From IMG/VR virus record IMGVR_UViG_3300042320_001097, positions 1 to 31,735 of that record: a stretch of DNA of 31,735 nt. One strand, given 5' to 3'. Below the pieces are notes generated by a model. It worked only from the letters and a program-made list of their open reading frames with translations, was not told the DNA's origin and ran no database searches. The stretch comes from a virus. Shown here one piece after another: positions 1-30,822 of the stretch; within the stretch, counting starts at the first letter, position 1; each line of letters opens with the position of its first letter. A program made the translations under genes and the position numbers.

Positions 1-60
1 GTCGGCTGCGGCAGCCCGCAGGCAGAGCTGCAAAAAGCAAAGGCCAGGGGTGCGCTGTGA
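1..60 (+). CDS. C-terminal end of an upstream gene (partial)
   Basis: An open frame enters from the left edge in frame 1 and ends at a TGA at 58-60. Only 19 residues are visible (ending KARGAL), too few to identify a family. The stop overlaps the GTG of the next gene in a GTGA junction, the same coupling used between the following genes, so this fragment is probably the end of another member of the same operon. Its identity could reveal one more step of the modification cassette. Confidence 0.5.
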   Translation, partial: VGCGSPQAELQKAKARGAL

Positions 61-584
61 AGACCGTGCTTTACGTCGTCGGAGCGCCCGGTGTAGGTAA
101 AAGCACTGCGCTCACCGGACTACTCGACAAGTGGGCCACCGCGCTTGTTCAGTCCCCAAAGTGGACATTGAGTGCGCCGATTGCTCTCGTTGGTCACTAC
201 GTAAAGGGCGGCCATGATGGCGGCGACACCGTTCCCTACGACGGTGCGGCAGAGTGCTTGACGTACATGCGCGATGTTCTGTTGCAAGATCACCGCCTGC
301 ATGGCTTTGTGCTGGATGGTGACCGCTTTACAACCTCTACCTGCCGTCAGTTCACTGACGGCCTACCTGGCATCCGTGTTGTGTGTGTTCATCTACAAGC
401 CAGTGACGCAACACTCACAGCCAGACGGACAGCCAGGGGCAGCACGCAGAACCCAACATGGATGCTCGGCCGCAACACGAAGGCGGCACGGTTTGCTGAC
501 AGCTTCCCCGACGCGGTACGGCTGCAGACTGATGAAATGAGGCCGGATGAAGTCACCCAGGCAATACGGGAACTGTTGCGGTGA
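57..584 (+). CDS. P-loop kinase, 5-hydroxymethyl-dU DNA kinase-like
   Basis: The 175-residue product has a Walker A loop GAPGVGKST at residues 9-17, a second conserved block around 45-60 (GHYVKGG...GGDTVPYD), a Walker B-like stretch FVLDGDRF at 84-91, and a late basic block with RG at 126-127 followed by QNPTWMLGRNTK. This order (lG.Y, GxD, lxGDRf, Rg..q...gR.TK) is what I remember of phage 5-hmdU DNA kinases, which phosphorylate 5-hydroxymethyluracil within DNA to make a leaving group for later substitution. The match is from memory, not from a search. The start is GTG at 57, with AGGGG 6 bases upstream and a GTGA overlap with the preceding stop. It overlaps the sulfotransferase-like gene by 4 bases. 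A generic nucleotide kinase is the alternative, but the amino acid:DNA transferase-like gene three genes downstream favours the DNA-modification role. Confidence 0.72.
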   Translation: MKTVLYVVGAPGVGKSTALTGLLDKWATALVQSPKWTLSAPIALVGHYVKGGHDGGDTVPYDGAAECLTYMRDVLLQDHRLHGFVLDGDRFTTSTCRQFTDGLPGIRVVCVHLQASDATLTARRTARGSTQNPTWMLGRNTKAARFADSFPDAVRLQTDEMRPDEVTQAIRELLR

Positions 585-1624
585 GCGCATCGCCAGTCGC
601 ACTTGCAGAGCCAGATCTTGCGAAAGTGAAAGCTTTGCTTCTGGACACGGCATCACCCGTACACGGTGATCCATCGTGTGTAGTGGTGTTGTTGTCTGCG
701 AGCCGTAGTGGAAGCAGCACGGTGCATGACCTGCTGGCCCGGTGCGATGCCGTCGCGGCCTTGCCAGGAGAGATTGAGCCATACCTGCGATTGACTGGTA
801 ACGCGCAAGGCGTAGATGGAAGTAACGAGGTCACTTCCTTCACAAACATCGAAGAACTGCGCGCGCTTGTCCGCACGGATCTGCGCCTATGGTCGCAACC
901 TCTACCGCTGGTTCATGGTTCTGATTGGCATCAGCGTCGCCTGTTGTTTCAGTCTCCTATGGGCTTGGAGCTGGACGAAGGCTGGTATGACGGTTGCAGC
1001 AGACCGCCCGCTTCCAATCTCACGGTCTTGGAAGAGCCGCCACTGGTTCCAATAGCAGATGCGGTGAAGCCGGGTAGCCTAAACGGCGTCAAACTCATAC
1101 TCAAAACACCACAACTCGTCTATCGACGTGGGCTGGTGGAGGCGCTGTTTCCAAACAGTCCGGTTCACTACCTACACCTAAGACGCAGCGCGCCGGGGAC
1201 TGTCAACGGACTGCTTGATGGGTGGCTTGGTCCACACTTTTGGTCATATCGACTACCAGCGCCTGATGGGGCGGCGATGCCTGACTGGTGGTGCTTTGAT
1301 GTGCCGCCAGGATGGCACGCGACACGAGGACTGCTTGATGCCTGTGTGCTGCAATGGGTTGCCGCCAACACGGCTGCGCTTCTGCACCCGCTGGTGGGGC
1401 ATCTCCACTACGAGGACTTGTGGAGGCCGCAAGCAGAGCAACGAATAGCAGCCGCTTGTGGGATTGCCGTTGAGGCACGGCTACGTACAGTGATGGCGAC
1501 AGAACAGCCGGCTGAAAGACGCTGGGCAACCAAGCGGCCAGAACTTGCAGGCTTGATGGAGAGGAATGACGTTACACAGCTCATGGAGCAGCTGGGTTAC
1601 GTGAATGGAGGTGTCCAGTGGTAG
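581..1624 (+). CDS. Sulfotransferase-like protein
   Basis: This 347-residue protein has a PAPS-sulfotransferase-like 5'-phosphosulfate loop, SASRSGSS at residues 39-46, after a hydrophobic strand (CVVVLL). An acidic GEIEPYL segment follows at 63-69. A second strand ends in YLHLRRSAPGTVNG at 197-210, which resembles the 3'-phosphate binding site (strand, Arg, Ser/Asn further on). The length fits the family. Sulfotransferases move a sulfo group from PAPS to a hydroxyl or amine. Here the gene sits between a 5-hmdU kinase-like gene and an amidinotransferase-like gene with 4- and 7-base overlaps, so the acceptor may be a modified base, a precursor, or a small amine; that is inference. The GTG start at 581 is fixed by the GTGA overlap. 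Some sulfotransferase-fold proteins have other activities, so the reaction is not certain. Confidence 0.6.
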   Translation: MSASPVALAEPDLAKVKALLLDTASPVHGDPSCVVVLLSASRSGSSTVHDLLARCDAVAALPGEIEPYLRLTGNAQGVDGSNEVTSFTNIEELRALVRTDLRLWSQPLPLVHGSDWHQRRLLFQSPMGLELDEGWYDGCSRPPASNLTVLEEPPLVPIADAVKPGSLNGVKLILKTPQLVYRRGLVEALFPNSPVHYLHLRRSAPGTVNGLLDGWLGPHFWSYRLPAPDGAAMPDWWCFDVPPGWHATRGLLDACVLQWVAANTAALLHPLVGHLHYEDLWRPQAEQRIAAACGIAVEARLRTVMATEQPAERRWATKRPELAGLMERNDVTQLMEQLGYVNGGVQW

Positions 1625-2451
1625 GGTTACAGGTCGTCAACCCGGATGGTCGGCTACGTTCAGTGCTGGTATCCAGTGCTGACAAGCTTGCGGCATCCTT
1701 GCCGGCCGCTGTTCCCGCAAGCTGGCTCGCCATGCCAGACGCAAAGGGTCTGATGGCAGAAGTGGAAGCATTCCACGACTTCTTGCGATCGCGCTTGCAG
1801 CTTGTTGTTGTCGACGTGGCCGACGCAACGCTGTTTGATGGCCTGTATGCGCGCGATTACGGCGCCGTCGTCAATCAGACGCTGTATCTGATGCGCAGTC
1901 CAGTGCCGCATCGTGCGCCAGAACGAGACAGGGTGGCTGACGAGCTGCAAAGGCTTGGAATCAAGGCAGTGTGCGCGCCAGATGATGTCTATGGTGAGGG
2001 AGCAGACCTGCTTCCGCTTTCGCAGGGCCGATGGGCAATCGCAACCGGACGGCGCACAACACAAGGCATGGCCTTATGGATGCGCTCGCAGCTTCCATCA
2101 GATCAAGTCCTCTATCGAACCAAAAAGCGTGGACCTGATGTGCCTCAGCACCTGCTGGGTGGCAACCGCATCCTCAACGGGGTGCTTTACCACCGCGCAG
2201 ATGTCGAGCCACTGCCAGGATGGACGGGCGAGTGCGTCAGTCTGAATGTCAATGATGAGGTTGGCAGCAAGCTCGGCATGAACTGGCTCGTGCTGGACAG
2301 GGCGGAAGTCGTGATGGCAGAGGACTGCCCAGGAGTGCGAGCCATGCTGGAGAAAAAAGGCATCAAAGTTCATGTTCTGCCGATGGCTAACATCAGGGCA
2401 ATGGGGGGCGGCTTTGCCTGCGCCACGTTGCCGCTGTGGAGAGATCTATGA
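1618..2451 (+). CDS. Pentein-fold amidinotransferase / amidinohydrolase-like protein
   Basis: The 277-residue product resembles the pentein superfamily (glycine amidinotransferase, dimethylargininase, arginine deiminase). Visible features are ARDYGAVV at residues 78-85, EGADLLPL at 127-134, a GRRTTQG turn at 144-150, and a C-terminal glycine-rich motif GGGFACATLPL with the expected nucleophile Cys268. These enzymes attack the guanidinium carbon of arginine-like substrates and either transfer the amidino group to an amine or hydrolyse it. By eye, the usual His-(Leu/Ile)-Asp motif before the last strand appears as VSLN (207-210), so the general-base His may be replaced or supplied elsewhere, for example by H178. 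The start is GTG at 1618 with GGAGGTG at 1607-1613; a later start is unlikely because MVGLQVVNPDG begins the first strand. It overlaps the sulfotransferase-like gene by 7 bases and the next gene by 4. Confidence 0.68.
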   Translation: MVGLQVVNPDGRLRSVLVSSADKLAASLPAAVPASWLAMPDAKGLMAEVEAFHDFLRSRLQLVVVDVADATLFDGLYARDYGAVVNQTLYLMRSPVPHRAPERDRVADELQRLGIKAVCAPDDVYGEGADLLPLSQGRWAIATGRRTTQGMALWMRSQLPSDQVLYRTKKRGPDVPQHLLGGNRILNGVLYHRADVEPLPGWTGECVSLNVNDEVGSKLGMNWLVLDRAEVVMAEDCPGVRAMLEKKGIKVHVLPMANIRAMGGGFACATLPLWRDL

Positions 2452-3404
2452 CAGATGCGCTTGATCCAACGTCATGGCCCTTGTGGTCTGTGTTCATTCG
2501 CTTTGCACGTCGTCAGCTGGAAACGCTCGACTACGACCCGTTCCATCCGATGCTGGTGCACCTACAGCGCGGCACGAGTGTTGATGAAGGCTTGTGGTCC
2601 AGCTTCCTTTACATGGCCTTCTACAACCTGGGATCAGCCTACTGTGCGTGGACAACAACACGTCCGATGCAGGCACTTCCAGCAATAGCGGACCGATGGT
2701 CTATCGGAACGCAAAGACGCAACCTGCGAGCAAGCAGTGTTTGCAAGCATGTTGAGTCATTGGCATCGCAAGCCAGACCGCACGGGAGCCTCTACAGCTT
2801 CTTCACACATGACTTCACTGGTAACGAAAAGGCAGATTGGCTAAGCCTTCTGAACAGGCTGGAAGGCGTGTGGGGTAACGGAAGGTGGGGCGCTTACACG
2901 ACAGCTGAGCTGCTACAGAAAGTGAACCAGCTACCAGTGCAGCCAGCAACCCTTGGATTGGAAGGAGCCACAGGCCCACGAAAGGGACTGGTGGTGCTGA
3001 CGGGCCTATCAGCGGAAACCAGCACGGAGGTCATGCAGGTGTATGGTGACGCGCTACTGGCCAAGCTACGCAGCCTGTTTCCAAACCCCCGCATCCCCTG
3101 GGCAAGACACGGCATTGACTTCGCAATGACCGAAAGCATCCTCTGCGACTTCTACGGCTTGACCAAGGGTCGCTACTACATCGGGCGGGACATAGACCGT
3201 GAGGCAGGACGGATACTGTCTCAAAGTGGTCGAACTGACGTGGATATGGGTCCCTTGTGGGCCGCACGCGCCACAGTGTTCCCACCTCACCTGCTTGCTG
3301 AGCGACGGAGGACCGTGCTGGACATTGATTATGAAAGAGCGCGGGTCTACAAAGAGACTGGCCTGCTGGCAGACTACCGTGACGACTTCCCTTTGCTGCC
3401 ATGA
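2448..3404 (+). CDS. Amino acid:DNA transferase-like protein (aGPT-Pplase family)
   Basis: This 318-residue, mostly helical protein contains blocks I recognise from the alpha-glutamyl/putrescinyl thymine pyrophosphorylase family, later called amino acid:DNA transferase. They are a helix LYMAFYNLGSAYCAW at residues 54-68, GTQRRNLR at 87-94, VWGNGRWGAYTTAELLQKV at 141-159 and GPRKGL at 176-181. Family members replace the (pyro)phosphate on activated 5-hydroxymethyl-dU in phage DNA with an amine such as an amino acid or putrescine. No search was possible; the call rests on remembered motifs. The ATG at 2448 overlaps the previous stop as ATGA and has GGAGAG a few bases upstream, so it is preferred over the in-frame GTG/ATG codons at 2436-2448. 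It is the last gene of the four-gene overlapping set; a new promoter-like site follows. Confidence 0.7.
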   Translation: MTDALDPTSWPLWSVFIRFARRQLETLDYDPFHPMLVHLQRGTSVDEGLWSSFLYMAFYNLGSAYCAWTTTRPMQALPAIADRWSIGTQRRNLRASSVCKHVESLASQARPHGSLYSFFTHDFTGNEKADWLSLLNRLEGVWGNGRWGAYTTAELLQKVNQLPVQPATLGLEGATGPRKGLVVLTGLSAETSTEVMQVYGDALLAKLRSLFPNPRIPWARHGIDFAMTESILCDFYGLTKGRYYIGRDIDREAGRILSQSGRTDVDMGPLWAARATVFPPHLLAERRRTVLDIDYERARVYKETGLLADYRDDFPLLP

Positions 3405-5344: not shown

Positions 5345-5769
5345 CCTTGCCTCAACGTGTGGCTGCCGCGCCGTGGTGGCGCTGGCCCATCGGCTGTGCG
5401 GTGCGCACGCCCGGCTGCGCGGATCTGCTGCGGGTGGTGGGGCACCAGCACGTGCAGCGGGCGCCGCACCTGCGCCTGCGGGTGCACGCGCGCGGGCTGG
5501 TGGAGCTGACGATGCGGGCCACGGCCTGCGCGCCCGCGCTGGACGACGACGCCACCGCCGCGCTGCTGCTGGCGGCCCTGTGGGCGCACGACCCCGAGTG
5601 GCACACCCACCACGACGCGGAGGGCTACGTGGCGCACGTAGACCCGCGCAGGGGCGAGTGGACGGCGCAGGTGCGGGGCGAGGCGCTGGCGCTCGCTGCG
5701 CTTGCCTGCCTTGGCGAGAACGGGATGGCGGGCGTCTGGCCTGCAATCAAAACAAAGGATGAACCATGA
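5332..5769 (+). CDS. Hypothetical protein, 145 aa
   Basis: No family is recognised. The sequence is strongly GC-rich compared with the genes before it and is rich in Ala, Arg, His and Trp. An acidic stretch ([19 protein letters not shown]) and a [10 protein letters not shown] helix suggest a helical soluble protein. The GTG start at 5332 overlaps the preceding stop by 13 bases, and its end overlaps the dUTPase start as ATGA, which supports the frame. It appears to belong to the same transcription unit as the nucleotide-metabolism genes. Confidence 0.6.
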
Positions 5770-6212
5770 CAACCCGTGACCATCACGTGCTCGTGCACGC
5801 ATCGCCTGCTGCTGTGGGCCTCCCCGAGTACGCAAGCAAAGGGGCCGCAGGCGCGGACCTACGCGCCGCGTCCGCCGTAGTGCTGGACCCTGGCTGCACC
5901 GCGCTGGTGCCGACCGGCATCAGCCTGCAGCTGCCGCCCGGTGTGGAGGCGCAGGTGCGCCCACGCAGCGGGCTGGCAATGAAGCACGGCATCACCGTGC
6001 TCAACGCGCCCGGCACCATTGACAGCGACTACCGGGGCGAGGTCAAGGTGTTGCTGGTGAACCACGGACGGGATGCGGTGCAGCTGGAGCGCGGCGACCG
6101 CATCGCGCAGCTGGTGCTGGCCCCGGTGCTGAGGGGCGTGTGGCTACCCGTGGACGAGCTGGACGAAACGGAGCGCGGGGCTGGTGGCTTTGGCTCAACG
6201 GGTCGCACATGA
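5766..6212 (+). CDS. dut: dUTP diphosphatase (trimeric dUTPase)
   Basis: All five trimeric dUTPase motifs are present in 148 residues: AGADLR (29-33 region), PRSGL (66-70), GTIDSDYRG (83-91) with the catalytic Asp, RGDRIAQL (109-116), and the glycine-rich C-terminal arm [10 protein letters not shown] (137-146). It hydrolyses dUTP to dUMP and pyrophosphate. This limits uracil in DNA and supplies dUMP, the precursor of dTMP and, in hypermodifying phages, of hydroxymethyl-dUMP. The length is normal and the enzyme looks complete. The ATG at 5766 and the stop at 6212 both form ATGA overlaps with neighbours. In this genome it plausibly feeds the modified-base pathway encoded at 57-3404. Confidence 0.95.
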
Positions 6213-24362: not shown

Positions 24363-24897
24363 TGGGTCCTCCACTACCGAAACGGATGCCAGCCTGGGTG
24401 CGTAGCTCGGCACCCATCACCAGCACAAATGCACGCAGCAATGCTGGTCGCAAAGCCGGATCGCTTACCGTCCACCACAACACGTCACGCCCCTGCATGA
24501 CGCGCGTTCCTTCCACAACCCACGGAGCGTGGGTTGGAACCTGCACCATCCAGCCGACTAAGTAGTATGGGCGTGAACCGCCACCACCACCAGCACGAAA
24601 CTTCAGAAGGCCCTGCAGCCGTGCGGCCATCAGGCCAGTGCGCTCATGGACGACGTGCGGCTGACTGGGATGAATGTTGATTGAGCCATGACGCTTTGCG
24701 TATGGGTGATCCATGCGGCGCAGCTGCGCAAGGCTGTGGTCATTGCGTGTAAGGTTGGCATATACCGCCGTCATCGCGACTCCACCAACCTTGGTCAATG
24801 CCCTGCCAGCCGCCGCACGGATGAACTTGTCTTTCAGATCACGGAGGTTGATGACCGTTGCCTCGATCCCAACCACACGTGTCTTGTCACGTGGCAT
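24352..24897 (-). CDS. HK97 gp10-like / tail neck protein, 181 aa
   Basis: Order and composition fit the HK97 gp10-like proteins that lie just before the tail completion gene: a helical N-terminus (VINLRDLKDKFIRAAAGRALTKVGGVAM), a mid segment with RTGLMAARLQGLL, and the C-terminal LLRAFVLVMGAELR. The ATG at 24897 has GAGGG 8 bases upstream; it overlaps the glycosyltransferase stop (24887) by 11 bases. The Gly-rich loop RAGGGGGSRPYY is unusual. I recognise the family by position more than by motif. Confidence 0.6.
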   Translation of the reverse strand: MPRDKTRVVGIEATVINLRDLKDKFIRAAAGRALTKVGGVAMTAVYANLTRNDHSLAQLRRMDHPYAKRHGSINIHPSQPHVVHERTGLMAARLQGLLKFRAGGGGGSRPYYLVGWMVQVPTHAPWVVEGTRVMQGRDVLWWTVSDPALRPALLRAFVLVMGAELRTQAGIRFGSGGPNVP

Positions 24898-27715
24898 CCT
24901 TGCCGCCCTCACCAACAGTATGCGGCGAGGTCAATGCCGCGTCCAGTGCATCCAGCAAGCTGTGCAGATCCACACCATCCGGCACCGCCGTCCGGCCCGC
25001 GCCCAACACGGGCTGGTCAGGCGCGTGCTCGCGCAGCCACCCGTGCATTGCTTCGACCTGCGGCATCAGTGTGTGTGCGGGCGCGAGCCTTCGCTGAGCC
25101 TCACCAACAAGCAGGCGAGCGGCCCGTAGATGGTAAAGCGCCGCCTCACGGAAAGGCAGGTAGCCGGTGCCCGCGCAGCGCATTGCGGCTTCGTAGCACT
25201 CCCACTGCTCGGCACGTCGCCCGTCGTTGCCGTATTGCAAGCCCAGGCTCACCCACGCGCCAGGGCTTGCCGGCTCGTCGGCAATCTGCTTGACCAACAG
25301 GCGCGTGTACCTTTCCAGCTTCCCCTGCATCGCATCGGGTCCGCCGGCCAGCCCACGGTGATCAACCGTAAAGGGCGCATAGCGCACCTGCGGGTGGATG
25401 CCGCGCCGACCCAGCTCGGCCATGCCGCGCTCCAAAGTCTCATGGACGCGGAAGTTGAAGCGGAGGATGCCACCGGCAAGCCGGAACAGCCGAGTATTCT
25501 CAGACCAGTTCCACTGCCCGTCTGCTCGCCAGTTGCGGAAGCGGAACATCCACGCCCAGCTGTCCGTGACCTCAACCATGCGGCGCAGCGCCACCGTGGC
25601 CAGGAACGTGCTCTCGTATTGCTCGTCCGGGTCCATCACAAGGCACCACGCGCATCCGTGCGCGCGCAGCCGGTCCACGCCCGCGTTCCGCGCCGTGCCC
25701 AGGTCGTCGTTCAGCGGCTGGTACACCCATTCGGCGCCGTAGCGCGCTGCCACGTACTGCACGTCGGCGCTGGGCGCGGTGCCCTCCGGGCCAGTCCACA
25801 CCAGCACCACATGATCGGCAAGTGCGTAGACGCTGTCGAGGTGACGATGCAGGTCGAACAGCTGCTCGCCAGCGTGCCACAGCATCGTAAAGCCGATGCC
25901 GTTGTCGGGCTGCCACGGGGCCAGCTGCATCCCTTCCTCTCTCACGAGGTGGTCGTACCCGCCACCGCCACTGGTGCGGCCTTGCGTGAGCACACTGTCA
26001 GGCTGCGCGTCCTTCTCGCGGTAGAAACGGAACTTGCGCAGCCGGTCGGCGTGGCGCAGGTAGCCATAGTGACGGAACCGCAGCGCCGCCACGCGCTTGG
26101 CGTTCTCGCCCGCGTCGGGCACGTTGCCGCAGTGCAGGCCGATGGCGTTGCCCGCCTGCACCTGCTGCACGCTCGGGTGCGTCACGCGCCACAGGCGGAA
26201 CCCGCGCATCGAGCTGCGGTAGTCGGGGCCGCACCAGGGCACGTCCACGCGGCACAGGCGCGGGCTGTCCCAGTGGTTCGCCCAGCCCACGTCGTAGTGC
26301 GTGACCAGCGGGTCAGGGTGTCGCATCCACTTCTGCAAAAGCTCGCGGTCAACGCGTTCCTCCACCACCTCATCGTGGTCCACCGACATCATCCAGTCGG
26401 GGGCCAGCTGCAGGCCCAGGCGGATCGCCGCGTTGCGCTCGTCGCGCTCGTTCCACTCGCCAGCCCACCCGCGCACCAGCACGGGAACCTCGCGCCCTGC
26501 ACTGGCTTGCGCGAGATCGAAGGCGTACCGCTGCAGCGCATCGGCCTGTGCGTCCAGCGTGGCGCCCTGGCACGCATCCAACAGCGCCTGCTCGGCGGGC
26601 GGCATCATGCCAGCCTGCCACTCCGGGCTGGCCAGCACGTCGGCGGGATTGCCGGTAAGCAGGATGGCCATGCCGTTCACCAGCTGCGCCGTGCGCCCCA
26701 AGCTCGCGCGCAGCATGGCAAGGTCGTTCGGCACGTGCAGCTTGACGCGCCACACCGCAACCAGCCGCTGCTCTCGGCTGGTGTACGCTTCCCAGGTGCG
26801 CAGGTACGTCGGCAGGTTGGCCAGCCCGCGCTGCGCCTCGGGGAACACGCTGTCCAGCGTCTGGTGCCCCAGGTGGTGCACGTAGCAGTTCGTCGCGATG
26901 GCCATGCGCCAGCCCAGCAGCTGCGCGCGCGCCGCGATGTCGTTGTCGTCGTACCCGCCCACGCCGTACTGCGGGCGCACAAGGCACACGCGACCCTCGT
27001 GCTGCTCCAGCAGCTGCAGCAGGCACTCGCGGTCATACAGCACGCACAGCCCGGACAGGAAGCTGGCCGCCATCGGGGTCCACCCGTTCTGCTCCGCGTA
27101 GCTGCCGGCGAACTGGTCCAGCATAGTGTCGGCGTCGGCGGTGAAGGCGCTGCCGGTGGGCAGCTTCACGTCGGGCGCGCGCACCTGCTGCATCCCCGCC
27201 ACCACGTTGGACACGGGGCCGACCATGCCGATCCGACCGTACCCGGCGACCGGGTGCGCAGGCGCCTGTAGGCCGTAGCCGGCCACCTCGCCCTGCAGCT
27301 TGATGTCGGGGCTGGTGAGCGCGCCGTGCAGCCGGTGCAGCCAGCTCGGCGTCACGCGCACGTCGTCGTTCATCACCACCACCGTAGGCGGAAGGCCACC
27401 GTGCTGCAGCGCGGCCTGGACGCCAGCGTTCACCGCGCCCGTCCAGCCGACAGGGCCGGGTAGCTGCACCCACTGCAGCTCCACCTGCTGCGGGCTGGTC
27501 GCGTTCGCCAGCTGCACCAGCGCCGACACCTGCTGGTGCAGCGCCTCGATGGTTCCGTCCTCCATCGCCTGCGGCAGCGGATTCACCACCAGCATCAGGC
27601 GCCAGCGATCAACCTGTGTGCAGCTGACCAGCCGCTGAACGCACGGCAGCACGAGGTCGGGGCGGCCCATCGTGGGCACGATGATGATGGCGTTGTTGGC
27701 GTCGTCGTGGTTCAT
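24887..27715 (-). CDS. Multi-domain glycosyltransferase, 942 aa
   Basis: Three GT-A-like domains appear in a row. Domain 1 (about 8-330) starts IIIVPTMGRPD, has the metal-binding MNDDV (115-119), and ends with GYDDNDIAARAQLLGW and VHHLGHQT, typical of family 2 enzymes. Domain 2 (about 400-610) has MMSVDHDEVVEE near residue 440. Domain 3 (about 620-800) has PLNDDLGTARNAG and CLVMDPDEQYES near 695, again with a D-x-D-type triad. A helical C-terminal part (about 820-900) with WVSLGLQYGNDGRRAEQWECYEAA looks like TPR repeats that may bind a protein acceptor. The ATG at 27715 has GGGGAG 5 bases upstream. Lying inside the head-tail operon, it probably glycosylates a virion protein, although modified DNA is an alternative acceptor. 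Confidence 0.85.
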   Translation of the reverse strand: MNHDDANNAIIIVPTMGRPDLVLPCVQRLVSCTQVDRWRLMLVVNPLPQAMEDGTIEALHQQVSALVQLANATSPQQVELQWVQLPGPVGWTGAVNAGVQAALQHGGLPPTVVVMNDDVRVTPSWLHRLHGALTSPDIKLQGEVAGYGLQAPAHPVAGYGRIGMVGPVSNVVAGMQQVRAPDVKLPTGSAFTADADTMLDQFAGSYAEQNGWTPMAASFLSGLCVLYDRECLLQLLEQHEGRVCLVRPQYGVGGYDDNDIAARAQLLGWRMAIATNCYVHHLGHQTLDSVFPEAQRGLANLPTYLRTWEAYTSREQRLVAVWRVKLHVPNDLAMLRASLGRTAQLVNGMAILLTGNPADVLASPEWQAGMMPPAEQALLDACQGATLDAQADALQRYAFDLAQASAGREVPVLVRGWAGEWNERDERNAAIRLGLQLAPDWMMSVDHDEVVEERVDRELLQKWMRHPDPLVTHYDVGWANHWDSPRLCRVDVPWCGPDYRSSMRGFRLWRVTHPSVQQVQAGNAIGLHCGNVPDAGENAKRVAALRFRHYGYLRHADRLRKFRFYREKDAQPDSVLTQGRTSGGGGYDHLVREEGMQLAPWQPDNGIGFTMLWHAGEQLFDLHRHLDSVYALADHVVLVWTGPEGTAPSADVQYVAARYGAEWVYQPLNDDLGTARNAGVDRLRAHGCAWCLVMDPDEQYESTFLATVALRRMVEVTDSWAWMFRFRNWRADGQWNWSENTRLFRLAGGILRFNFRVHETLERGMAELGRRGIHPQVRYAPFTVDHRGLAGGPDAMQGKLERYTRLLVKQIADEPASPGAWVSLGLQYGNDGRRAEQWECYEAAMRCAGTGYLPFREAALYHLRAARLLVGEAQRRLAPAHTLMPQVEAMHGWLREHAPDQPVLGAGRTAVPDGVDLHSLLDALDAALTSPHTVGEGGKDAT

Positions 27716-27763
27716 GCTGGCTCCCCGCCTCCTGGGCGTGTGTGGGTGCACAGCGTATCTCAC

Positions 27764-27788: not shown

Positions 27789-28420
27789 CACTTAGGACCG
27801 TAACGGTCTGCCCGGCAGTGCCAGTGATGCGGCCGGAAACCGAAGCCAACGCGGATCTCTCGCACACCACCTACAAGCCACTGGTCGCCAGTGTCATCTT
27901 CGATGAAGAAGTCCTGCGCGCTCGGTGCCCAAGTTTCCTCATAGTCAATAAGGAAGATTGCCGCATCTTCCTCCTTTGTGCCCTGATTGTAGACGGGCAC
28001 CTTGATCCAGCCTGACCATCCAAGCACTGCGGGCTTGCTTTCCGCCACGGTCACGAGCATGAACTGTGGCGTACCGTCCGCGCTCACTGCCTGCACGGAA
28101 ACCGTTGGAATAACTGCTTCATTCGCAAGCCCTGTGGTCACCACACTTGTCAACGTCGCAAAACGCTTGGTAGAAACCTGAGTTCCGTTTGCTGCAAACG
28201 TCAGCGTTTCTGACTGTGAAGCACCACCCGGCGCTGTACCGACCAGCTGCACGGTTCCACTTCCAGTCGTTCCGTTTGCTACCGTGACCTGTAAGAACGC
28301 CTGACCGAGCAAAGCGCGTGTCGGGGTCATGTTGGCCGCAGCTGGCGAAGCAACGAGAGCGAAAGCAGTCTTTCGCTGTACGGTGATGTAACGATTGGCA
28401 CTGCTGCTAACCGTGCTCAC
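27788..28420 (-). CDS. Head-tail joining (stopper-like) protein, 210 aa
   Basis: The first two thirds are Thr/Ala/Val-rich beta structure (FLQVTVANGTTGSGTVQLVG, SETLTFAANGTQVSTKRFATL), resembling an Ig-like or decoration domain. The last part (DFFIEDDTGDQWLVGGVREIRVGFGF) resembles the short beta-barrel core of head-closure/stopper proteins (D..G..w.V..v). Position between the connector and tail completion genes supports a head-tail joining role. The GTG at 28420 overlaps the methyltransferase stop as GTGA. The assignment is tentative, and an accessory virion protein is also possible. Confidence 0.5.
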   Translation of the reverse strand: MSTVSSSANRYITVQRKTAFALVASPAAANMTPTRALLGQAFLQVTVANGTTGSGTVQLVGTAPGGASQSETLTFAANGTQVSTKRFATLTSVVTTGLANEAVIPTVSVQAVSADGTPQFMLVTVAESKPAVLGWSGWIKVPVYNQGTKEEDAAIFLIDYEETWAPSAQDFFIEDDTGDQWLVGGVREIRVGFGFRPHHWHCRADRYGPK

Positions 28421-28926
28421 GCCCGCACACCCCAAACGAAAGTGTCCAACCCGTTGCGCTCCAGTCGGCCATGCAGGCTCGACCACTCGCACTCTTTCCG
28501 CAAGACTTCCAGCATCTCGTCAGGATCACGCCCACCGTAGTATCCCGGCGTTGGACTATCCTCCAGATGATGCTCGGGGCGCGCCCGGCTCGCGCAGCTG
28601 AACGCCAGCAGGCCGCCCGGCCGCAGGTGCGCCGCCGCCGCCTGCAGGGTCTGCTGCCAGAACGGGTCGTGCTCCAGCATCTCCGTGGATACCACCACGT
28701 CCACGGGGCCGCCCTCGGGCGGGTGCTCGTGGGCGATGCCCACCACGTCCACGCCAGCGCCCGCATAAGCGTCGATGCCCAGGTAGTACGACGGGGCCGG
28801 GAACAGCCGGCGCGGGCTGCCGTTGATGTCGCGGCTGCCGTATTCCAGCACCCGCGCGCCCGGCGCGAACAGTGCGGGATGCGCAAGGCGCAGCCCCTGC
28901 AGCCAATCCATCACGGTGCTGTGCAT
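28417..28926 (-). CDS. Class I SAM-dependent methyltransferase, 169 aa
   Basis: The Rossmann-fold methyltransferase signature is visible: motif I ARVLEYGSRDING (25-36), the acidic end of strand 2 in YLGIDAYAGAGVDVV (48-62), and motif IV-like DVVVSTEMLEHDPFW (76-90), followed by LRPGGLLAFSC. This is the small type often encoded near phage or bacterial glycan genes, where it methylates sugars; DNA or protein are other options. The ATG at 28926 follows the previous stop by 2 bases and has GAGGA 7 bases upstream. The first 110 residues are coded by much more GC-rich DNA than the last 55, suggesting a mosaic junction near 28575. Confidence 0.82.
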   Translation of the reverse strand: MHSTVMDWLQGLRLAHPALFAPGARVLEYGSRDINGSPRRLFPAPSYYLGIDAYAGAGVDVVGIAHEHPPEGGPVDVVVSTEMLEHDPFWQQTLQAAAAHLRPGGLLAFSCASRARPEHHLEDSPTPGYYGGRDPDEMLEVLRKECEWSSLHGRLERNGLDTFVWGVRA

Positions 28927-28928
28927 AA

Positions 28929-29594
28929 TCAATCCTCGTCCTGCTCGGCCTGTTCTTCACTGGTGTCGCTGTCGCTGGCCAAGTTGTCAGCCATCAACTC
29001 AGGCGGCACCAGTATCTCGTCAGGTGGTGCCGGCAGCTGGGCGGACACGTCGGGCGCTACAGGCGCCAAAGGCGCGCCGGGGTGCGCCGCAGCCTCCGGG
29101 GCAGCCGCCCCTACCCCCGGCACCGCCGCAGCGCCCTGGTGGGCGCTTACGGGCCGCATCAGGGTGGGTACTGGTTGCCAACCGCCCGGCCCATAAGCCT
29201 GCACCGCAACCTGGGCAGCATCCGACACCACCACTCTCAAGGCTGCGCTACCCACATCAACCACATGCACTTCGTGGTGCGAAGTAAGCGACTGAGCGGC
29301 ATCCCGTACCGCCGGGGCATCGCCATACACCAACAACACCACCGCCGCACGCAGGTCGCCCACCGCCAGCGCGCGCAAAAGGTAGGGTTGTGCGCCTGCT
29401 AACAGGCTGGCGCGCCCCACCTGCGCCCGGTAGCCGTGCCGGGCTGCAACCGCCCTACCGCGCCCCACGGCCGGTAACGGGGCACCGCCGGGCTGGTCGG
29501 TAAACAACACGTGCCGCGCATAGTGCAGGCCCGGCTGAGCAAGTGGAAGCAGGTCCAGGGAAGGCACAATGCCCACCACATCAGTTTGGCTCAC
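28929..29594 (-). CDS. Unknown protein with Pro/Ala linker and acidic tail, 221 aa
   Basis: No family recognised. Residues 1-145 look like an alpha/beta domain (VVGIVPSLDLLPLAQPGLHYARHVLF, LRAAVVLLVYGDAPAV, HEVHVVDVGSAALRVVV). Residues about 150-195 are a Pro/Ala-rich linker, and the end is strongly acidic (SDSDTSEEQAEQDED), possibly a mimic of nucleic acid charge or a docking tail. The ATG at 29594 forms an ATGA overlap with the dehydratase stop. It may work with the neighbouring sugar genes or in head-tail joining. Confidence 0.6.
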   Translation of the reverse strand: MSQTDVVGIVPSLDLLPLAQPGLHYARHVLFTDQPGGAPLPAVGRGRAVAARHGYRAQVGRASLLAGAQPYLLRALAVGDLRAAVVLLVYGDAPAVRDAAQSLTSHHEVHVVDVGSAALRVVVSDAAQVAVQAYGPGGWQPVPTLMRPVSAHQGAAAVPGVGAAAPEAAAHPGAPLAPVAPDVSAQLPAPPDEILVPPELMADNLASDSDTSEEQAEQDED

Positions 29595-30589
29595 GTTGCC
29601 TCCACATAAGATGCAAGCTGAACATCACTGCCACGGTACGCGGCAAGCAGCCTGTCAAGATGCTGCGGATCCAACAGGCGCTGCCGTGCCTCCCATCCCA
29701 GCCGGCGCAGATAGTCACCTGTCACGCAGTAAGCCCGGTCTTGACCGGGCCGGTCGCGGCTGTCCACCACCGCAGCGTGCGCTGGTACACCCGCCCGCTC
29801 AGCCAGCGCGAGCACCACCTGTCGCACACTGGCCACGCACGGGCCTGCGATGTTGACGGTCGTGCCCGCTTGCAACCTTCCGGCTGCAAGCCACGTGGAA
29901 ACGGTGCACAAGGCGTCAGCAAACTCGCCAACCGCGATCCACTGGCGAAGCTGGTGCCCGCCACCGTGCAGCGGCACGGGGCGCCCAGCCTGGAGTAGCG
30001 CGCAGGCGATAGGCACCAGCTTCTCGCCCAGCTGGCCCTCGCCCCATGCGTTGCACCCGCGCGTGATTGCGTAGCGCAGGCCCGCGCTCGTGCCCATCGC
30101 CCGCACTGCAAGCTCCCCGGCGGCCTTCCCGGCGCTGTATGGGCTGCTTGGGTTTAGTGCAGATCCCTCGCTAAATCCTTCGAACGACGGTTGCCCCTCA
30201 ACCACGGGTCCATACACCTCGTCGGTGGAGCAGTAGACCAGCGGCACGCCAGCGGTCGCGCAAGCGGAAGCAACAACCTGTGTGCCGTAGCCGTTGACGA
30301 TCATGGCTTCGTTTGGTTGTTGTAAGCTACGATCTACATGACTTTGTGCAGCCAGATGCAGCACTACATCAGGCTGCGCGTCCAACATCGACACACGCAC
30401 TTCATGCGGATCGCACACGTCACCGCGCCACAGCTGGTCGTCAATCATACCTTGCACGGCATCCCATCCGGTCGCCGCGCGCGTGCGCGCGTCCAGCACG
30501 GTCACGCTGCGCGCGCCGTGCCTTTGCACAAGCTGTCGAACCACGTGCTGACCGATGAAGCCAGCTCCACCTGTGACAAGGAAGCGCAT
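29591..30589 (-). CDS. dTDP-glucose 4,6-dehydratase-like (extended SDR), 332 aa
   Basis: The product is a complete extended short-chain dehydrogenase with the NAD-binding TGGAGFIG (6-13), LHLAAQSHVDRS (78-89), the RmlB-type active-site motif STDEVYG (121-127) giving Thr-Asp-Glu, and the catalytic YSAGK (Tyr151, Lys155). RmlB converts dTDP-glucose to dTDP-4-keto-6-deoxyglucose, the branch point for rhamnose and other deoxy sugars. A related NDP-sugar substrate is possible. The ATG at 30589 is fixed by a TGATG junction with the preceding gene, not by the longer frame to 30661. The encoded sugar nucleotide may serve the large glycosyltransferase in the same operon. Confidence 0.88.
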   Translation of the reverse strand: MRFLVTGGAGFIGQHVVRQLVQRHGARSVTVLDARTRAATGWDAVQGMIDDQLWRGDVCDPHEVRVSMLDAQPDVVLHLAAQSHVDRSLQQPNEAMIVNGYGTQVVASACATAGVPLVYCSTDEVYGPVVEGQPSFEGFSEGSALNPSSPYSAGKAAGELAVRAMGTSAGLRYAITRGCNAWGEGQLGEKLVPIACALLQAGRPVPLHGGGHQLRQWIAVGEFADALCTVSTWLAAGRLQAGTTVNIAGPCVASVRQVVLALAERAGVPAHAAVVDSRDRPGQDRAYCVTGDYLRRLGWEARQRLLDPQHLDRLLAAYRGSDVQLASYVEAT

Positions 30590-30822
30590 CAGCCACCACT
30601 CTTGCGGCGTCGGGTCTTTGCTTCTGTCACTGGCTGCACAGGGGGCTGAACGGCCTGCCATCGCTTCCGCAGCAATACTGCCTCAGCCGTGGTTGTGTGC
30701 GCTTCCGCGATCCAGCTTCCGTCCGCATTACGTGTGGCGACGACGGCTTCCTCTGGCGTATACACCACCATTCCATCATCAGGATCGCCATAGACGTGCG
30801 GGCGTGTCCAAAAGGTGCTCAT
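30589..30822 (-). CDS. Hypothetical protein, 77 aa, neck region
   Basis: This small protein is unrecognised. It has an aromatic N-terminus (FWTRPHVYGDPDDGMVVYTPEEAVV), a central beta/helix segment and a basic C-terminus (AKTRRRKSGG). It overlaps the connector gene by 4 bases (ATGA) and the dehydratase by one base. The arrangement implies co-translation with the connector; a small head or neck accessory role is likely but not shown. Confidence 0.6.
   Translation of the reverse strand: MSTFWTRPHVYGDPDDGMVVYTPEEAVVATRNADGSWIAEAHTTTAEAVLLRKRWQAVQPPVQPVTEAKTRRRKSGG

What the first reader, a model, noticed from the sequence alone, without database searches (positions are those of the whole stretch)
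1618..2451. Pentein enzyme in a DNA-modification operon, possibly with a changed general base
Cys268 in GGGFACAT and the RD and EGAD motifs are in place for amidino transfer. Where amidinotransferases and DDAH normally show His-Leu/Ile-Asp, I align VSLN (207-210). A guanidino-modified base or nucleotide would be new; alternatively the enzyme may use a different donor or a remote His such as H178.
Basis: partly seen in the sequence, partly recalled or inferred. Interest (0 to 1): 0.75.

Follow-up and report, generated by a model that had tools for sequence, protein, structure and literature searches.

The report
Phage arginine-enzyme in DNA-modification operon
A virus gene cluster that probably decorates the virus's own DNA carries an enzyme of the arginine-processing family, paired in every relative found with a sulfate-transferring-type enzyme; the pairing looks new, but the enzyme's active site appears complete, not altered as first thought.

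Summary
The ORF at 1618-2451 is a real pentein: model pLDDT 86; best structural matches arginine deiminase Z 31.8, ArgZ 28.9, amidinotransferases about 28, DDAH 27.7. The claimed altered general base is wrong. The catalytic His is H178 in PQH[LI], invariant in 11 of 11 complete, distinct family members and aligned to DDAH His162. The triad is C268-H178-E127; Glu is the ADI/DDAH acid, amidinotransferases use Asp. The residues matching the arginine-binding pair of DDAH are invariant too. Arginine-type hydrolysis giving citrulline is therefore favoured over amidino transfer, without proof. The gene lies in a TET/JBP-kinase-[insert]-AADT operon like the thymine-hypermodification cassettes of actinophages. 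The insert is a sulfotransferase-like gene plus the pentein; the two occur together in 13 of 13 viral records found (12 distinct). Ten of the 11 records without TET have thymidylate-synthase homologues by Pfam. One record and a syntenic sister contig also encode ArgG-ArgH (citrulline to arginine) and APS kinase. tblastn found neither gene in 50,697 phage records, and literature searches found no report of the pair. The chemistry on the base is unproven.

The parts
1..60 (+). 3' end of a TET/JBP-type dioxygenase gene; the complete gene is L001:5538-6443, in the longer contig with identical sequence
   Evidence: PF12851 Tet_JBP E 8.1e-25 for L001:5538-6443; the window is identical to L001 over the 10,448 bases compared; the place follows from that offset
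57..584 (+). P-loop kinase, candidate 5-hydroxymethyl-pyrimidine DNA kinase
   Evidence: AAA_33 30.6 bits and Ploopntkinase3 27.4 bits, both just over the cut-off of 27; tblastn to the kinase region of phage MO526 33%, 5e-15, and of Tonitrus 23%, E 0.004; PMC11955845 calls the Tonitrus gene a 5-hmU DNA kinase
581..1624 (+). sulfotransferase-like protein, partner of the pentein in every record found
   Evidence: profile hits two sulfotransferase domains (4gox 5.7e-5, 4gbm 1.6e-4); model pLDDT 64; Foldseek best E 4.7e-3, none at 0.001; VIA rows 1-39 are sulfotransferases (Teg12, Teg14 and StaL by recall), best Z 14.0; two relatives pass PF13469; the window copy alone scores 14.6 bits, below the cut-off of 27
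1618..2451 (+). pentein, DDAH/ADI-like with a Glu-His-Cys triad
1996..1998 (+). codon of Glu127, triad acid (equivalent to DDAH Glu114)
   Evidence: invariant 11 of 11; aligned
2149..2151 (+). codon of His178, general base (equivalent to DDAH His162)
   Evidence: invariant 11 of 11; aligned
2236..2247 (+).
   Evidence: position 208 is S, H, I, L, A or T; only L209 is kept (10 of 11)
2419..2421 (+). codon of Cys268, nucleophile (equivalent to DDAH Cys249)
   Evidence: invariant 11 of 11; aligned to the Cys of the GGxxC motif of DDAH and GATM
2436..3404 (+). AADT (amino acid:DNA transferase / aGPT-Pplase family)
   Evidence: PF18724 64.4 bits against a cut-off of 26.2; 30-42% identical to the seven other viral rows of the alignment

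Best explanation
The gene encodes a pentein with a complete active site of the Glu-His-Cys (DDAH/ADI-like) type. It works with its sulfotransferase-like neighbour as a two-gene tailoring module of a viral pyrimidine-hypermodification pathway. In the window the pathway would run: TET/JBP hydroxylates the 5-methyl group (inferred), the P-loop kinase activates the hydroxymethyl (inferred from the Tonitrus annotation and from the 5hmdU kinase step described in PMC6449724, passages read), AADT attaches an amine-bearing compound (inferred from the family name), and the sulfotransferase/pentein pair makes or finishes the side chain. The pentein's own step: Cys268 attacks the guanidinium carbon of arginine, or of an N-omega-substituted arginine held by Arg99 and Arg146; ammonia or an amine leaves; His178, backed by Glu127, activates water; citrulline is released (inferred from the active site and from ArgG-ArgH in a relative). 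Arginine would therefore serve as nitrogen donor or side-chain precursor. Shown: pentein family, predicted fold and triad residues, the pair, the operon. Inferred: substrate, product and role on DNA.
For: Fold and triad. The acid is Glu in 11 of 11; ADI/DDAH use Glu (PMC11659421, PMC3474736), amidinotransferases Asp (PMC3684758). R99, R146 and D/N74 align with DDAH Arg85, Arg132 and Asp60 (counted on the printout); PMC11659421 section 9 says two arginines and an aspartate of ADI and DDAH hold the substrate carboxylate and amine, and matching them to these positions is my inference from spacing. Pairing: both genes in 13 of 13 records, two of which show one partner only as a fragment at the contig end; overlapping or 1 nt apart in 10 of the 11 loci measured, 709 nt apart in the other. 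Operon. Whole records: TET in 2 of 13, thymidylate synthase in 10 of 13, none with both. Citrulline: ArgG and ArgH adjacent in G009, both over NCBIfam cut-offs, and again in sister contig L048. PAPS: APS kinase in G009 and in the record of L048.
Against: No activity, product or modified base was observed. ArgG and APS kinase were each found in 1 of 15 records, plus the sister contig; in G009 they lie 42 and 36 kb from the pentein, and the APS kinase stands among KDO and GDP-mannose genes by eye, so they may serve surface glycans or general metabolism. ArgH was sought only in fetched loci. The window copy of the sulfotransferase is below the PF13469 cut-off, Foldseek gives the partner model no match at E 0.001, and the Ser of the 3'-phosphate site is Asn in all 11 rows, 10 distinct. 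Leu180 replaces the Asp that ADIs use to hold the guanidinium. The window protein is below all four NCBIfam cut-offs shown (scores of the other 10 members are not shown). VIA Z does not separate ADI, ArgZ, amidinotransferases and DDAH clearly (26 to 32), and a single-sequence search ranks GATM, StrB1 and DDAH almost level.
Confidence: 0.5

Rival explanations
1. Amidinotransferase: Cys268 keeps the amidino group of arginine, ornithine leaves, and an amine on the base or a precursor takes the amidino group, giving a guanidino-modified base.
For: Single-sequence search of the window protein lists GATM and StrB1 first (0.0014, 0.0016), DDAH close behind (0.0019); GGGFACAT resembles the GGGFHCAT of StrB1; VIA Z 28 for HsvA, GATM and SxtG; AADT supplies an amine nearby. 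Secondary-metabolite pathways combining an amidinotransferase with a sulfotransferase exist (recalled).
Against: Triad acid Glu in 11 of 11, Asp in the amidinotransferases (PMC3684758); family profile DDAH 4.8e-20 against GATM 1.3e-8; residue before Cys is Ala in 11 of 11; ArgG-ArgH in a relative fits citrulline, whereas amidino transfer would yield ornithine.
Confidence: 0.22
2. Plain arginine deiminase-like supply enzyme: free arginine to citrulline plus ammonia, feeding a nitrogen or amino-acid need of infection, not a step on the base.
For: arcA model matches 11 of 11 members at E <= 0.1; substrate carboxylate- and amine-binding residues kept; ArgG-ArgH present in a relative.
Against: The guanidinium-holding Asp of ADI is Leu180 (10 of 11); the gene is paired with a sulfotransferase-like gene in 13 of 13 records and sits beside modification genes of two different architectures.
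Confidence: 0.15
3. The sulfotransferase/pentein pair makes something unrelated to DNA, for example a virion or host-surface decoration, and shares the operon only by position.
For: Sulfotransferases usually act on glycans, peptides or small molecules (recalled); the window carries glycosyltransferase and epimerase genes elsewhere; in G009 the APS kinase lies beside KDO genes by eye.
Against: The pair lies between the kinase and AADT with overlapping genes in the window and in L008, and near kinase, thymidylate-synthase-like and APH genes in most of the others.
Confidence: 0.13

Closest known systems
DDAH (dimethylarginine dimethylaminohydrolase), P. aeruginosa 1h70/3rhy
   Same: Single-domain pentein of similar size, Cys-His-Glu triad, Asp80, the two arginines equivalent to Arg85 and Arg132; best profile match (4.8e-20)
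   Different: Leu (10 of 11) instead of Lys two residues after His; Asn instead of Asp60 in 9 of 11; 15-17% identity in VIA rows; window protein below the two DDAH cut-offs shown; phage operon context
Arginine deiminase (ArcA)
   Same: Triad, C-terminal C-M-x-x-P-x-x-R-like pattern in most members, N.....RD motif in 9 of 11 (KD in one of these); best structural match Z 31.8
   Different: 277 aa against about 400; guanidinium-holding Asp is Leu; far below the arcA cut-off (13.1 against 489.1 bits)
L-arginine:glycine and inosamine-phosphate amidinotransferases (GATM, StrB1)
   Same: Fold (Z 27-28) and a GGGFxCAT-like motif
   Different: Triad acid Glu not Asp; no HxD; Ala not His before Cys
Thymidine-hypermodification cassette of Rhodococcus phage Tonitrus (ParB, Tet-like JBP, aGPT-Pplase2, 5-hmU DNA kinase; PMC11955845, passages read)
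   Same: ParB, TET, kinase and AADT homologues
   Different: No PF02274 match in Tonitrus, LittleMunchkin or MO526 (0 of 3 whole records) and no sulfotransferase homologue in their fetched loci; gene order differs
CurM / olefin-synthase sulfotransferase domains and tyrosylprotein sulfotransferases
   Same: Fold of the partner protein (VIA Z 13-14), SR[SG]GS[ST] loop, Arg202
   Different: Asn for the 3'-phosphate Ser; substrate unknown; low-confidence model (pLDDT 64)

Membership tests
Pentein (guanidino-group modifying) superfamily | five-fold beta-beta-alpha-beta propeller fold | tested here: met
   Model pLDDT 86.3, pTM 0.87; 143 PDB chains at Foldseek E <= 0.001, the 50 listed all penteins; VIA Z up to 31.8
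Pentein (guanidino-group modifying) superfamily | catalytic Cys, His and acidic residue | tested here: met
   C268, H178, E127 each 11 of 11, aligned to DDAH C249, H162, E114 (counted)
Amidinotransferase (GATM/StrB1/CyrA) | Asp-His-Cys triad (PMC3684758) | tested here: not met
   Glu127 in 11 of 11; no alignment here reached this position in GATM itself, so the correspondence runs through DDAH
Amidinotransferase (GATM/StrB1/CyrA) | amidino transfer to an amine with release of ornithine | not testable with these tools
   needs an enzyme assay
Arginine deiminase (ArcA) | Glu-His-Cys triad with both guanidinium-holding Asp residues (PMC3474736) | tested here: not met
   Triad and Asp80 present; the second Asp is Leu in 10 of 11, Gln in 1
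Arginine deiminase (ArcA) | NCBIfam arcA equivalog cut-off | tested here: not met
   13.1 bits against 489.1 for the window protein
DDAH | Glu-His-Cys triad and Arg85/Arg132/Asp66 equivalents | tested here: met
   E127, H178, C268, R99, R146, D80 invariant in 11 of 11; alignment
DDAH | Lys two residues after the catalytic His (PMC11659421) | tested here: not met
   Leu in 10 of 11, Gln in 1
DDAH | NCBIfam equivalog cut-offs | tested here: not met
   29.6 against 340 and 27.7 against 300 bits for the window protein
TET-type thymine hypermodification cassette | ParB, TET/JBP, kinase and AADT genes together | tested here: met
   (ParB and TET read from the longer contig L001)
TET-type thymine hypermodification cassette | hypermodified thymine in virion DNA | not testable with these tools
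   needs nucleoside mass spectrometry
PAPS-dependent sulfotransferase (partner gene) | sulfotransferase fold | tested here: met
   VIA rows 1-39 are sulfotransferases, best Z 14.0, first other fold (adenylate kinase) at Z 9.1; but the model is low-confidence and Foldseek had no match at E 0.001
PAPS-dependent sulfotransferase (partner gene) | 5'-phosphosulfate loop and 3'-phosphate Arg...Ser | tested here: inconclusive
   SR[SG]GS[ST] and Arg202 invariant, but the Ser position is Asn in all 11 rows, 10 distinct; the motif definition is recalled

The most novel reading that the evidence does not exclude
Arginine is used as a nitrogen synthon on DNA: the hydroxymethyl-pyrimidine is activated (by the kinase or by sulfation), becomes bonded to the guanidino nitrogen of arginine, and the DDAH-like pentein then cuts the N-omega-substituted arginine, leaving an amino- or guanidine-derived (possibly sulfated) pyrimidine and citrulline; some of these viruses recycle citrulline with their own ArgG-ArgH and make PAPS with their own APS kinase.
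Probability: 0.15. Interest if true: 0.9.

Novelty: new variant of a known kind. Interest (0 to 1): 0.6.

Why it matters
Known thymidine hypermodifications are built from a few amines, amino acids and sugars (general knowledge). A conserved sulfotransferase-like/pentein module beside two kinds of pyrimidine-modification genes points to a possible class of arginine-derived or sulfated bases not yet seen in DNA, and names the exact genes to test. If the pentein acts on a nucleotide or DNA substrate it would extend a superfamily known for arginine metabolites, proteins and antibiotics to nucleic acid.

Tried and rejected
Rejected: the altered general base (H178 is the His). Rejected: VSLN as the His-x-Asp site (only L209 kept). 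Tried without result: tblastn of the window pentein, of the L018 pentein and of the L018 sulfotransferase-like protein against 50,697 phage records at E <= 0.01 (no match; the window's own sulfotransferase was not searched there); two scans of bacterial and archaeal genome contigs (58 and 54 pattern matches, 0 confirmed; confirmation uses only the divergent window sequence, so weak); literature searches for amidinotransferase, sulfotransferase or arginine deiminase with phage base modification (two papers, each holding the word 'amidinotransferase' once and not opened; none in the other three). A search for viral ArgG/ArgH listed one paper, PMC5513705; the passages seen place these enzymes in microbial aspartate metabolism and name a viral aspartate ammonia-lyase. 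The papers on thymidine hypermodification that I looked for (10.1093/nar/gkab781 = PMC8989533, PMC5889632) and two others tried by DOI are not held, so 'not in print' is limited to these searches. Searches to bring the acid of the triad of GATM itself into an alignment failed: the alignments shown there were to DDAH, ADI and NnhA. Coordinates of the predicted models were not available, so Cys-His-Glu distances were not measured. The HMMs for the two thymidylate-synthase paralogues gave the same genes, so the paralogues are not told apart there. RESC5 (an RNA-editing protein with this fold, Z 23.5) was considered and not pursued.

A predicted cytosine C5-methyltransferase near the L008 cassette (1 of 15 records) leaves open that TET acts on methylcytosine there; so I write pyrimidine, not thymine, for the family.

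Full report
Observation. The ORF at 1618-2451 is there (277 aa, GTG start). It is a pentein: PF02274 matches above its cut-off (28.9 bits against 22.8). A model made with 10 homologues has mean pLDDT 86.3 and pTM 0.87. Foldseek gives 143 PDB chains at E <= 0.001, and VIA-align gives arginine deiminase Z 31.8 (273 residues, 2.3 A), ArgZ 28.9, HsvA 28.3, GATM 28.0 and DDAH 27.7. Z values this close do not assign a subfamily.

The general base. With homologues in hand this fails. Eleven complete members (near-duplicate L030 and truncated L039 left out; pairwise identity 24-83%) all carry PQH at 176-178. The family profile aligns along most of its length (positions 38-281 of 288) with P. aeruginosa DDAH (3rhy, E 4.8e-20). 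Counting residues on that printout puts H178 on His162, E127 on Glu114, D80 on Asp66, R99 on Arg85, R146 on Arg132, position 74 on Asp60 and C268 on Cys249. In the chain of the H162G mutant (3bpb) the same place reads G. One result stands against: in the weak single-sequence match to GATM H178 faces an Asn and the GATM His faces a gap. At position 180, two residues after the His, ADIs have Asp and DDAHs Lys (PMC11659421, section 9 read); here it is Leu in 10 of 11 and Gln in 1.

Hydrolase or transferase. ADI and DDAH use a Glu-His-Cys triad (PMC11659421 and PMC3474736, passages read); the amidinotransferases GATM and AoaA use Asp-His-Cys (PMC3684758, passages read). This family has Glu in 11 of 11. 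I could not bring the GATM acid itself into an alignment, so the correspondence runs through DDAH. The profile ranks DDAH and ADI (4.8e-20, 1e-16) well above GATM (1.3e-8) and StrB1 (5.8e-4). NCBIfam DDAH and arcA models match 11 of 11 members at E <= 0.1; the window protein is far below their cut-offs, and scores of the other members are not shown. The arginines aligned to those of DDAH are kept. These points favour guanidino hydrolysis of an arginine-type substrate, giving citrulline. They do not prove it: the single-sequence search of the window protein put amidinotransferases first by a hair (0.0014 and 0.0016, DDAH 0.0019), and in this superfamily the outcome depends on whether water or an amine takes the intermediate (general knowledge).

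The operon. The window record (31,735 bases) is identical, over the 10,448 bases compared, to part of a 79,355-base contig (G001). There the order is ParB, TET/JBP (PF12851 8e-25), P-loop kinase, sulfotransferase-like, pentein, AADT (PF18724 64 bits). Apart from the sulfotransferase-like gene and the pentein, these kinds of gene are those of Rhodococcus phage Tonitrus, which its authors say may be a thymidine-hypermodification system (PMC11955845, passages read). The whole records of Tonitrus, LittleMunchkin and MO526 and of the AADT contigs G003, G004 and the weak match G006 have no PF02274 match; two of the eight records (G002, G005) have one.

The partner. Searches started from the pentein and from its neighbour each reached 12 records, 11 of them in common. 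In 13 of 13 records (12 distinct, as G012 and G013 are 99.98% identical over 17 kb) both genes are present; in G015 only a 56-residue end of the sulfotransferase and in G016 only the start of the pentein are held. In 11 loci measured, the genes overlap or lie 1 nt apart in 10 and 709 nt apart in one, by the longest-ORF starts. A P-loop kinase of one of two kinds is found in 11 of the 12 records whose upstream flank is held; G005 has none by these models. The partner's profile hits sulfotransferase domains (4gox, 4gbm). Its model is weak (pLDDT 64) and Foldseek has no match at E 0.001 (best tyrosylprotein sulfotransferase, 4.7e-3), but VIA rows 1-39 are sulfotransferases, Z up to 14.0. The loop SR[SG]GS[ST] and Arg202 are invariant; the usual Ser of the 3'-phosphate site is Asn in all 11 rows, 10 distinct.

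Two architectures. TET occurs in 2 of 13 records (the window's G001 and G002), a thymidylate-synthase homologue at E <= 0.001 in 10 of 13 (8 over cut-off), and no record has both; G011 has neither by Pfam but has the thymidylate-synthase-like gene by HMM. AADT occurs in 3 of 13 (G001, G002, G005). Nine of 13 carry an APH-type kinase near the pair. So the pair travels with two routes to a 5-substituted pyrimidine and is not tied to AADT. Most records may be fragments, so absences are weak. A C5-methyltransferase in G002 (1 of 15) means cytosine cannot be excluded as the target.

Supply genes. G009 encodes APS kinase (7.6e-74; 1 of 15 records) and an adjacent pair ArgG-ArgH, both over NCBIfam equivalog cut-offs (ArgG in 1 of 15 records). 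A second contig, L048, from the same metagenome number as L018 (3300032270) and syntenic with G009 at about 74% nucleotide identity, has ArgG (78% identical) with ArgH and APS kinase in the same record. That L018 and L048 are pieces of one virus is inference. ArgG-like sequence is found in 16 of 50,697 phage records at E <= 1e-10. These genes fit a system that turns arginine into citrulline and uses PAPS. But ArgG and APS kinase lie 42 and 36 kb from the pentein, and the APS kinase stands among sugar genes by eye, so the link is suggestive only.

Novelty. No homologue of the window or L018 pentein, or of the L018 sulfotransferase-like protein, was found by tblastn in 50,697 phage records, nor was a pentein confirmed in the genome-contig scans. 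Full-text searches of the held library listed no paper on such a pair, but key papers are not held. I call it a new variant of a known kind: known enzyme superfamilies and a known operon type in a combination I did not find described.

Noticed in passing
L045:3202-5684 (phage contig G009) and L048:6001-8485: Adjacent argininosuccinate synthase and lyase genes over NCBIfam equivalog cut-offs in two related viral contigs.
   Followed up: partly
L041:6608-7561 (G009:66607-67560): APS kinase domain followed by a HAD-like part, next to a cytidylyltransferase-like gene and, by eye, KDO and GDP-mannose pathway genes.
   Followed up: partly
L011:4294-5367: Adenylosuccinate-synthetase homologue with motif GGQFGSEGKGK; matches both PurA and PurZ models below cut-off, best a PurA model, so a PurZ-like 2-aminoadenine system in the same virus as AADT and the pentein is possible, not shown.
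   Followed up: partly
L011:6766-7113: AdoMet decarboxylase (PF02675 56 bits) about 0.8 kb upstream of AADT, hinting at polyamines in that virus.
   Followed up: no
L031:9365-9826: Nucleoside 2-deoxyribosyltransferase-like gene (PF15891 2e-34) between the sulfotransferase-like gene and the pentein.
   Followed up: no
L018:8874-9608 and L018:5330-6190: Two inserted genes that look by eye like homing endonucleases, on either side of the kinase-sulfotransferase-pentein genes; not at the same places in the related L019 and L021.
   Followed up: no
window 24887-27763 (-), 28417-28932 (-), 29591-30661 (-): Glycosyltransferase 2-type protein of 958 aa, a methyltransferase and an NAD-dependent epimerase.
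   Followed up: no
window 5766-6212 (+): dUTPase (PF00692 2e-35) downstream of the modification genes.
   Followed up: no
L008:10288-11160 (-): Cytosine C5-methyltransferase about 1.3 kb downstream of AADT, the only one among 15 records.
   Followed up: partly
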